This document shows positions 3,001-42,720 of a stretch of 45,230 bases of DNA, piece after piece (positions within the stretch are counted from its first letter, which is position 1; the number at the start of each line of letters is the position of its first letter). A program made the translations under genes and the position numbers. The stretch is from a virus. The notes beneath the pieces are model-generated. The model saw only the letters and a program-made list of their open reading frames with translations, was not told the origin of the DNA and made no database searches. The DNA lies in the IMG/VR virus record IMGVR_UViG_3300032265_001397, positions 1 through 45,230 of that record; one strand, given 5' to 3'.

Positions 3001-4084
3001 GCCCCATAGCCGTAGCCTGCATTTCTGCGGGCGATGCCTTGGTTGAAAGGATATCATTCGCAAAATTGCGTAGGTCTGCCTGACCGTCACCCAACCAAGT
3101 ACCGAGCTTATCTTGCAGGATTTTAGCGGCTTCGGGGCGACCTTCAAATATCTTTTCAAGTTCCGCATGACGGGAGGGATCAACAAGGTTGAAAAGCGTT
3201 ACAGGTTTTCCTTCCTCTTTTGCCTTGACCCAATCCGCAATTTTACTTTCGTCGATCATTCCGGCTACTTTGTCGGCCAGCCGTTTTTCGCCGCCAAACA
3301 GGTTTTTAGCAAATGTGCCAACGGCAGTATCAGATAGACCGCTAGCAATAGACGAAATTCCTTTACCAGCAAGGCTAAGTCCAGCACCAGCACCCCCGCC
3401 AATCAACGCGGATTCCGCGATTCCGGGCTCATCCTGTTTGCTTTTAGTGCCAAACGCCTGTTCGCCAACAGCAGTACCAGCACCGAATGCGGCACCTTCC
3501 GCGCCTACACCCAATGCCCTAGCGGCTGTAGGGCCAAGCCCACGCGCAAGTGCTACAGCTTCAACAGGAGCGGCAACAGCCAACGATTGGGGGGCATAAC
3601 GTGTGGCCAAAACAATGCCCGCAAATTCCCCCGCGCCCTTTGCGAGAGCATGCTTTTCTTCATACGCACGGGCTACAGCCTCGTCTTCGGCTTTCAACTG
3701 ACCATAACGTTCCGAGAAATTCTTACCTTCCCCGGCACCCAATGCAGCCATTGCCCCACGGGTAGCAGTGCGCAAGCCAGTCCATTCCCCGACTTTGCCG
3801 ACGCCTTCCACGAAAGCCCCCGGTGCGCCCTTGGAGGCTACGTCACCGTCTTTTGTAATAAACTCACGGGCCTTCGGCAATAAAGACCGTACTTTGTTTT
3901 CGTACTCTTGATCCTCGGGGGAGATGTTCTTGCCGGAAGAAGAAGCGGATGGAGCAGACTTCCCAAATGCCGCATCCATGTCAATGGAGCCGGGCTTCTG
4001 TTCGCCCGTTGGTTGATTGCCTGTCGATGCCTGTTGCTTGTTTGGGTTACCAAACGCAGCGTCCATATCAAAAGAGTCAGCCAT
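1..4084 (-). CDS. Large polyvalent protein / internal virion protein, C-terminus beyond left edge
   Basis: The reading frame is open for at least 1361 codons and runs off the left edge, so the C-terminus is missing. The ATG at 4084 sits one base after the stop of the upstream 1246-aa gene. The N-terminus carries a tandem motif (FDMDAAFG near residue 5, IDMDAAFG near 34), then an Ala/Gly-rich helical stretch (about 100-200). A run of GG motifs (AAGGAVH, NEGGAVH, SDGGV) lies near residues 753-782. The C-terminal third has an IEEAQSD element near 1053, followed about 110 residues later by a conserved helix ending in AAKQGYESVTVTPW. That pairing (EIQSD, then a helix and 'A..GYD.v.wT') is what I know from large polyvalent protein-associated domains of phages. 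These giant proteins are thought to be packaged and ejected with DNA; no catalytic activity can be claimed here. Confidence 0.8.
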   Translation of the reverse strand, partial: MADSFDMDAAFGNPNKQQASTGNQPTGEQKPGSIDMDAAFGKSAPSASSSGKNISPEDQEYENKVRSLLPKAREFITKDGDVASKGAPGAFVEGVGKVGEWTGLRTATRGAMAALGAGEGKNFSERYGQLKAEDEAVARAYEEKHALAKGAGEFAGIVLATRYAPQSLAVAAPVEAVALARGLGPTAARALGVGAEGAAFGAGTAVGEQAFGTKSKQDEPGIAESALIGGGAGAGLSLAGKGISSIASGLSDTAVGTFAKNLFGGEKRLADKVAGMIDESKIADWVKAKEEGKPVTLFNLVDPSRHAELEKIFEGRPEAAKILQDKLGTWLGDGQADLRNFANDILSTKASPAEMQATAMGLAKQRVTSAYEAAKREGNGAGSWDSKWNKWLNSNTFTDALDKTIADMREKTALRKGDPDLYESPFIKGEASELKTDPNDARAMAESFFTKKGVEPPAGIEHLGEGAPVGRYQLVNPGAVDIDFLDTLQRNLNRASESKMNIKNTPSGDVGAEIANARQQIMDSLTDPKSSLYNKEYAEALRAHTNAERTEDAFTYGRKIWSSATNAAKSSEIASEVAAMSPREKYYVAHGVLEEAIARASNADGTVKIGVLNNLLKGYTKQAVESALGPRRFSELERHIRTQATLSNAIQAASKFGGGQSYNADLSRTARVAWAYLIHDHAALASLAYNLAEQHVNNKFAKNIATKLASDDLNAFKEGLSLAEKNPTFMRAMGQYLKDNASQVMTKENASRFMGALAGGHAAGGAVHMNEGGAVHMSDGGVPPRTLDERGMYSEGAETARKILPKAQGSGPEFITRLLGKGVRPDELHHTRIGGIPLRHMETGELHPAVQGKIGGQELADLIHNNAPQLNRIIRNEHSNEYRPTYDMKSQKLPGAKAYSEMNVAKPTSSGQDVFSPPAEDYSVIPQHTGYEGYPRQSAAHPRNTLLMPIDDLNARFFSHWDQGSQSANRYGRVHDRFGHYMGLLRIDPGTNGENFEEKRPALQEAAQKKANDRLKQKTSPTMEHFTDVPNLAYHSRMSDIPLLKGVKLVKNLNIEEAQSDAARRYDTNNRENRPPDRFAYDPKVHQKKYEEAVAAQERLRASDKPFIENPQDFKTIQDYEHYFDGLTGGYAAPDVPHLESNKSWQRALAKDVLHHAAKQGYESVTVTPWQEIVRRAKHSTPVDQLEIQSFGKTRSNIPSWDNQEPEQFHVEGLPIPLTMDDLKKVYGNEIESRVRKILPEGKRGDITLHDDSLAKTPFYAFVPHHEEVDPEDEDSVQQFLAEVIDSGKSTRRKAEVHNAFIKQLQNVINEEHDPHFKIDYEHSKKHSDRPLESGHVRGQKIVAPGAFLSPELRESILKKG

Positions 4085-39493: not shown

Positions 39494-39520
39494 ACAAAAC
39501 TAAAAGACTGTGAACGAGTG

Positions 39521-39547
39521 AGGGGACCCGTAGGTCCCCTTTTTTTA
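39521..39547 (+). terminator. Intrinsic terminator between convergent genes
   Basis: AGGGGACC (39521-39528), loop CGTA, GGTCCCCT (39533-39540), then seven Ts. A textbook rho-independent terminator for the plus-strand operon 38401-39493. It also lies just past the end of the convergent DUF932 gene. Confidence 0.88.
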
Positions 39548-42005: not shown

Positions 42006-42158
42006 ATGCGTGAATTCACAGTGACGATGACCAAATTCTATGAAATTTCCATCCTCGCGGAAGACGAAGACCGCGCAATCGAAATTGCGGAAGAAACCCC
42101 CTTAACCGATTTGGGTTGGGAATTAACACATGTTGAATATGATACGGAAGGCGAATAA
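42006..42158 (+). CDS. Small protein (50 aa) with AIEIAEE motif
   Basis: 50 residues from the ATG at 42006, preceded by GGGAGTGA. Sequence MREFTVTMTKFYEISILAED, then EDRAIEIAEETPLTDLGWEL. It is a beta-strand followed by the helix 'eaAIEIAEE', also found in the protein at 43440-43649. Likely a small single-fold protein; function unknown. A terminator follows it. Confidence 0.7.
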   Translation: MREFTVTMTKFYEISILAEDEDRAIEIAEETPLTDLGWELTHVEYDTEGE

Positions 42159-42176: not shown

Positions 42177-42205
42177 AAAGCCCCTGTGATGAGCGGGGGT
42201 TTTTT
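42177..42205 (+). terminator. Intrinsic terminator
   Basis: AAAGCCCC (42177-42184) pairs with GGGGTTTT (42196-42203) around an 11-base loop, with the T-run reaching 42205. It ends the three-gene unit 41408-42158. Confidence 0.7.
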
Positions 42206-42241: not shown

Positions 42242-42466
42242 ATGAAACCAAGGCACATAGAAGCCCAAGCACTGGCATCGCCGCTCTTCCGAAACCGAAT
42301 CAAACCGGACAAAAAGAAAGCGCAGAACAGGCGGAAATGCCGTTCCAAACCCCAGACAAACTTCACGATGACAAAGAGCAGGGGCGGGTCAAACCGCCCT
42401 TTTCTATTGATAAAACAATATACTAACCAAAACCAAACCGCAAGATATTACCCATTGACATATTAA
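42242..42466 (+). CDS. arfA: ArfA-like alternative ribosome-rescue factor with internal terminator
   Basis: The frame codes for 74 residues. The first 25 (KPRHIEAQALASPLFRNRIK) match the ArfA core, where E. coli has an 'aieALlhdPLFRqRv' sequence, and a basic stretch follows (KKKAQNRRKCRSKPQ). ArfA recruits release factor 2 to ribosomes stalled on mRNAs without a stop codon. An intrinsic terminator hairpin (42382-42403) lies inside the frame. Transcripts ending there would have about 54 codons and no stop, just as described for E. coli arfA, whose truncated product is the active one. The last 20 codons overlap the next gene's promoter. The KGKGSY motif is missing, so family membership is probable, not certain. 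Shine-Dalgarno AGGATAGGA is weak. Confidence 0.6.
   Translation: MKPRHIEAQALASPLFRNRIKPDKKKAQNRRKCRSKPQTNFTMTKSRGGSNRPFLLIKQYTNQNQTARYYPLTY
42382..42403 (+). terminator. Intrinsic terminator inside the ArfA-like frame
   Basis: GGGCGG (42382-42387), loop GTCAAA, CCGCCC (42394-42399), then TTTTCT. It falls at codons 47-54 of the ArfA-like frame, before its stop codon at 42464-42466. This would generate a nonstop transcript. Confidence 0.75.
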
Positions 42467-42482
42467 ACCTTTCGTTTAAAAT
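42455..42482 (+). promoter_or_regulatory. Sigma70-type promoter
   Basis: TTGACA (42455-42460), 16-base spacer, TAAAAT (42477-42482). The best promoter match in the plus block. It lies in the 3' end of the ArfA-like frame and drives the operon from 42526. Confidence 0.7.
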
Positions 42483-42525: not shown

Positions 42526-42720
42526 ATGAAGATTCGGTTTTATTACTGCCAGCAGTGCGGCAGCACTCACATCACTGCGCCCACTACAACCGAATGGGAT
42601 CAGACGACCCAGCAATGGGTTGCGGCACCACCCAATTTGGAAACCGGATTCTGTCGGGTCTGTGAGGGTCCAACACAAATCCGCGAGGGCTTAATTATGG
42701 AAAAATTTGGGGACAATTGA
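42526..42720 (+). CDS. Zinc-ribbon protein (64 aa)
   Basis: 64 residues from the ATG at 42526 with AAAGGGG upstream; an ATG at 42508 is in frame but has no site. C8-Q-Q-C11 and C43-R-V-C46 form a classical zinc ribbon (YYCQQCGSTHI and GFCRVCEGP). Such small ribbons often bind nucleic acid or RNA polymerase. Its stop overlaps the next ATG (TGATG). First gene after the strong promoter, so probably expressed early and well. Confidence 0.75.
   Translation: MKIRFYYCQQCGSTHITAPTTTEWDQTTQQWVAAPPNLETGFCRVCEGPTQIREGLIMEKFGDN

What the first reader, a model, noticed from the sequence alone, without database searches (positions are those of the whole stretch)
42242..42466. Phage ArfA-like gene with a terminator inside its coding frame
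The frame encodes a protein whose N-terminal half fits ArfA (ALASPLFRNRI followed by a basic stretch). A rho-independent hairpin with TTTT sits at codons 47-54, before the stop. In E. coli, arfA mRNA is made without a stop codon by an internal hairpin, so ArfA is produced only when trans-translation fails. Here a phage gene appears to copy both the protein and this regulatory trick. That would let the virus keep ribosomes free late in infection or sense tmRNA capacity.
Basis: partly seen in the sequence, partly recalled or inferred. Interest (0 to 1): 0.78.

Follow-up and report, generated by a model that had tools for sequence, protein, structure and literature searches.

The report
Phage ribosome-rescue gene lacking usable stop
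This phage carries a divergent relative of ArfA, a bacterial ribosome-rescue protein, and its gene runs into a transcription terminator before any stop codon, so the protein should accumulate only when the host's main rescue system (tmRNA) is overloaded; phage ArfA genes were already known, but I found no description of this stop-less arrangement in phages.

Summary
In detail: ORF 42242-42466 (74 codons) carries a terminator (stem 42380-42401, then TTCTATT) across codons 47-54, in frame, about 60 nt before its stop. The protein itself fails the ArfA Pfam model (best 13.9 bits, cut-off 25.5). Homology is shown through intermediates: phage relatives L098/L099 are 57% identical to the window protein and score about 38 bits (E about 1e-9) against an ArfA profile built without this clade. 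Only the N-terminal, RF2-contacting module (about 25 residues) is alignable; the KGKGSYxRK mRNA-channel motif is replaced by another basic tail. The hairpin stays in frame in four relatives, with a compensatory stem change. Coding constraint stops at the hairpin: an indel shifts the frame right after the T-run and no residues are shared beyond it. In-frame terminators occur in 25 of 98 distinct arfA-type frames, mostly from phages, against 3 of 797 control ORFs, in several clusters; many other phage arfA genes have ordinary stops. Most likely the gene makes a non-stop mRNA giving a protein of about 54-56 residues that trans-translation represses, as for bacterial arfA and brfA. Transcript ends and rescue activity were not tested.

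The parts
42242..42409 (+). divergent ArfA-like coding region, predicted non-stop product of about 54-56 residues
   Evidence: purifying selection up to the hairpin; transitive homology to ArfA
42269..42301 (+). QALASPLFRNR, counterpart of the ArfA decoding-centre / RF2-contacting patch (E. coli P23, L24, F25)
   Evidence: profile alignments; role of Pro23, Leu24, Phe25 from PMC5378476
42380..42401 (+). rho-independent terminator stem-loop inside the frame (codons 47-54), T-rich tail 42402-42408
   Evidence: conserved in relatives with a compensatory change at 42382/42399
42410..42466 (+). frame beyond the terminator to TAA, predicted to be mostly untranscribed
   Evidence: no coding constraint against L098/L099 and frame shift after the T-run
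42177..42203 (+). upstream terminator-like hairpin between the preceding gene and arfA; absent in L098/L099, where arfA overlaps the upstream gene
42455..42482 (+). promoter-like site (TTGACA-16-TAAAAT) for the next gene; overlaps the distal TAA
   Evidence: TTGACA conserved in relatives
42006..42158 (+). small conserved gene upstream (function unknown)
42526..42720 (+). conserved small gene downstream (Cys-rich, function unknown), used to find L098/L099

Best explanation
It is a phage-borne, divergent ArfA expressed from a non-stop mRNA. Shown: homology of the N-terminal module to ArfA through intermediates; a terminator inside the frame, conserved in frame across the clade; coding constraint that ends at the terminator. 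Inferred: most transcripts end at about codon 54-56 without a stop codon, so ribosomes stall at the 3' end and tmRNA tags the product for destruction. When tmRNA is saturated, untagged peptide of about 54-56 residues is released, binds ribosomes with an empty mRNA channel through its basic tail, and uses the PLFR patch to recruit the host release factor (RF2), freeing ribosomes. The gene would be a self-regulated backup that switches on when trans-translation capacity runs out.
For: Terminator in frame and conserved with a compensatory pair; selection before but not after it, and frame shift right after the T-run; ArfA profile without this clade finds L099/L098 at 38.4/37.6 bits and the window at 15.2 bits, next in the list; PF03889 18.2-18.4 bits for L098/L099; hhalign of the clade with bacterial-type ArfA 92% probability over 21 columns; same layout in other phage arfA clusters; precedents arfA and brfA (PMC8012679; PMC6881298).
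Against: No Pfam match over cut-off for the window protein or L098/L099. KGKGSYxRK is absent, and in an ungapped alignment the residue matching E. coli Ala18 is Q, although many accepted phage ArfAs also vary there. The relative L103 has an ordinary stop and no hairpin. No transcript or protein data.
Confidence: 0.68

Rival explanations
1. ArfA-like gene with an ordinary operon terminator that overlaps its end by accident; enough transcripts read through to the TAA and the 74-aa protein is the product.
For: A TAA is present at the same place in window, L001 and L002; the hairpin also closes an operon before a promoter-like site.
Against: Codons 57-74 show no protein constraint against L098/L099 and the frame differs after the T-run; the shared TAA overlaps a promoter-like site that is itself conserved; in-frame terminators are about 70 times commoner in arfA-type frames than in control ORFs.
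Confidence: 0.15
2. A small basic phage protein that shares the ArfA N-terminal motif by descent but no longer rescues ribosomes (for example another ribosome- or RNA-binding regulator), made from a non-stop mRNA.
For: The mRNA-channel motif is replaced by RRxCRxxPxTxFTMTK; L098/L099 score slightly better with DUF7230, of unknown function, than with ArfA.
Against: The RF2-contacting patch is the conserved part; the tail remains strongly basic; the non-stop layout is typical of tmRNA-backup factors.
Confidence: 0.14
3. Chance: a spurious open frame over a terminator, with an accidental ArfA-like word.
For: Direct family searches with the full protein are empty.
Against: Strong purifying selection in codons 1-35, clade conservation, independent match of L098/L099 to ArfA.
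Confidence: 0.03

Closest known systems
ArfA (YhdL) of E. coli and other Gammaproteobacteria, PF03889
   Same: N-terminal (S/D)PLFRxR patch plus a basic tail; hairpin inside the frame; truncated product of about 55 residues.
   Different: Below the Pfam cut-off; no KGKGSYxRK; a simple 8-bp terminator instead of the long E. coli stem that is also cut by RNase III; carried by a phage.
BrfA of Bacillus subtilis
   Same: Rho-independent terminator inside the coding frame giving a non-stop mRNA (PMC6881298).
   Different: Sequence was not compared here; bacterial, Gram-positive.
Citromicrobium phage RXM gp10 (ArfA, PMC8953757)
   Same: Phage ArfA; its frame also runs through a hairpin with a short T-run.
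   Different: Keeps KGRGSYTRK and passes the Pfam cut-off; its paper does not mention a terminator or the stop codon.
Pelagibacter phage HTVC027P gp30 (ArfA, PMC12753301)
   Same: Phage ArfA, strongly expressed early and late in infection; its portal is 32% identical to the window's.
   Different: Ordinary stop codon, with no hairpin evident in the sequence read.
Pfam DUF7230 (PF23876)
   Same: L098/L099 match it (about 21 bits, below its 27-bit cut-off) over the same N-terminal stretch that matches ArfA.
   Different: No assigned function; probably an ArfA-type family, not tested further.

Membership tests
ArfA (PF03889) | Match to the curated family profile above its cut-off (25.5 bits) | tested here: not met
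   Window: none full length, 13.9 bits for residues 1-26; L098/L099: 18.2-18.4 bits
ArfA (PF03889) | Homology of the N-terminal module with the PLFR-type RF2-contacting patch | tested here: met
   Clade-free ArfA profile: L098/L099 E about 1e-9, window E 0.018; L098 57% identical to window
ArfA (PF03889) | KGKGSYxRK stretch that lies in the mRNA entry channel | tested here: not met
   Replaced by KKxxxxRRKCRSKPQT; still basic
ArfA (PF03889) | RF2-dependent peptide release from non-stop ribosomes | not testable with these tools
   Needs complementation or purified translation
Rescue factors made from non-stop mRNA (bacterial arfA, brfA) | Terminator or RNase III hairpin inside the frame upstream of the stop codon | tested here: met
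Rescue factors made from non-stop mRNA (bacterial arfA, brfA) | Residues after the hairpin not conserved | tested here: met
   0 of 18 residues shared with L098/L099, pN about equal to pS
Rescue factors made from non-stop mRNA (bacterial arfA, brfA) | Product level controlled by tmRNA | not testable with these tools
   Needs a delta-ssrA comparison

The most novel reading that the evidence does not exclude
Several phage lineages have separately acquired or kept a stop-less arfA as a sensor of tmRNA capacity, and the window clade has in addition evolved a new mRNA-channel tail (RRxCRxxPxTxFTMTK) in place of KGKGSYxRK, making a new subclass of RF-recruiting rescue factor.
Probability: 0.35. Interest if true: 0.7.

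Novelty: new variant of a known kind. Interest (0 to 1): 0.58.

Why it matters
ArfA made from non-stop mRNA is a well-known fail-safe of bacteria. Finding the same stop-less design kept in several phage clusters, while other phage arfA genes have ordinary stops, suggests that some phages benefit from sensing tmRNA capacity instead of simply adding rescue factor. Several of the closest cultured-phage proteins come from phages of Alphaproteobacteria, where one survey found no arfA in 2,376 genomes (PMC11633108), so such phages may bring a rescue route the host lacks; the window's own host is not established. It makes ribosome-rescue demand during infection directly testable.

Tried and rejected
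Direct Pfam, NCBIfam, PHROG, PDB and phage-collection searches with the full protein were empty. The genome-contig scan gave one ArfA-like gene, in a Paceibacterota metagenome bin, so no host could be named from it. Apart from the clade members, the TerL-relative loci and the stretches read of phages MW202675 and CRP-902 show no clear arfA; many of those loci are short, so absence is weak evidence. Structure prediction was not run: from general knowledge ArfA is largely unstructured off the ribosome, so a model of the free peptide would not discriminate. Survey hits L139, L155 and L169 should be treated as doubtful: L139 and L155 lie in longer composite frames, and L169 was not examined separately; leaving all three out (22 hits) does not change the conclusion. 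The tree of ArfA cores has too few columns (38) to settle the number of origins: parsimony needs 5 changes, starred branches force only 2.

Full report
What is there. The window is a virus record of 45,230 bases with tailed-phage genes: terminase large subunit, portal and a primase/helicase. Several of the closest cultured-phage proteins are from phages of Alphaproteobacteria (terminase 46% to Roseobacter phage CRP-902; primase/helicase 40% to a Bradyrhizobium phage), but the host is not established. The best portal match is an uncultured spring-water phage (48%). The finding lies among small + strand genes. ORF 42242-42466 encodes 74 residues.

The terminator. A stem-loop at 42380-42401 with a T-rich tail lies in codons 47-54. 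It is more stable than any shuffle and is terminator-like only in the direction of the gene. A promoter-like TTGACA-16-TAAAAT follows at 42455-42482, so the hairpin probably also closes an operon. In window, L001 and L002 a second hairpin (42177-42203 in the window) precedes the gene. I saw no clear promoter between it and the ATG, so how the gene is expressed is open. In L098/L099 the arfA start instead overlaps the end of the upstream gene (read from the sequence).

Is it ArfA? Full-length searches fail; residues 1-26 give PF03889 at 13.9 bits, E 0.039. Scans of viral contigs found L001 (identical over 56 residues) and L002 (87-88%) and, by the downstream neighbour gene, L098 and L099, whose proteins are 57% identical to the window's. 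A profile of 69 ArfA-type sequences that leaves the whole clade out scores L099 38.4 and L098 37.6 bits (E about 1e-9 among 20,349 ORFs) and the window 15.2 bits (E 0.018), next in the list. Profile comparison with bacterial-type ArfA gives 92% probability over 21 columns, the RF2-contacting module. So the N-terminal module is ArfA by transitive homology. The mRNA-channel motif is not conserved and the curated cut-off is not met, so I call it a divergent ArfA-like protein, not a proven member of PF03889.

Is the non-stop design real? First, the hairpin is in frame in the window and four relatives, with one double, pairing-preserving change (42382-42399 G-C becomes A-T in L098/L099). Second, codons 1-35 are under purifying selection (window vs L002: pS 0.47, pN 0.05; window vs L098: pS 0.91, pN 0.36), while codons 57-74 show none (window vs L098: pN 0.70, pS 0.72, 0 of 18 identical), and a single-base indel right after the T-run shifts the frame. 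Synonymous differences are few in the stretch just before and within the hairpin, as expected for a structured element. Third, of 98 distinct arfA-type frames (mostly viral, seven from bacterial replicons) 25 have an in-frame terminator, against 3 of 797 other ORFs and 0.1 expected after codon shuffling. The detector is strict: it misses the long imperfect stem of E. coli arfA and the RXM hairpin. The positives fall into the window clade, an L128/L129 group that joins RXM (L010, labelled by hand from its fold), a KGKSLPF group (L131, L157 and others) and Pseudomonas phage Y3, an unverified record. Members of one group are near relatives, so 25 is not 25 events.

Mechanism. By analogy with arfA (PMC8012679) and brfA (PMC6881298), termination near codon 54-56 gives an mRNA without a stop codon; the product is tagged by tmRNA and degraded unless trans-translation is saturated. 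Everything from the transcript end to rescue activity is inference here.

Known and new. Phage ArfA is already reported for RXM (PMC8953757) and HTVC027P (PMC12753301). HTVC027P gp30 has an ordinary stop, as do several annotated phage arfA genes. In my searches of an open-access library I saw no report of a stop-less phage arfA; most subscription papers were not searchable, and I read only the passages cited, so absence is not proven.

Noticed in passing
L139, L155, L168, L171, L176, L204, L205: Longer frames in which a KGKGSYxRK-type stretch is followed by a conserved GG..(K)STVNKAGNYTKP.MRK.LF..IKAGGKGG region; possibly ArfA-like motifs joined to another phage protein.
   Followed up: no
L102, end at 3138: A further clade member (MKRRSTEGAALMSPLFRHRVKPDKKRNERRKMCRSKPQTDLTMTKS) whose contig ends just where the hairpin would begin.
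   Followed up: partly
L103:2980-3117: A relative with the KCRTK-type tail but an ordinary stop and no hairpin; useful as a contrast.
   Followed up: partly
L124:4962-5183: ArfA-like gene (MKNRNPIAKALRSPSLHQRVVADKKK) on a 207-kb contig binned as Candidatus Paceibacterota; unexpected taxon, possibly a phage or misbinned contig.
   Followed up: no
L012:517-741: Salmonella phage Arash gp99c is annotated ribosomal protein L2 but scores 67 bits with the ArfA profile: likely misannotation.
   Followed up: partly
L006:583-738 and L098:2733-2897: ArfA-like phage proteins also match DUF7230 (PF23876), which is therefore probably an ArfA-type family.
   Followed up: no
window 39520-39541: Strong terminator-like hairpin GAGGGGACCCGTAGGTCCCCTT followed by TTTTTATT on the + strand.
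   Followed up: no
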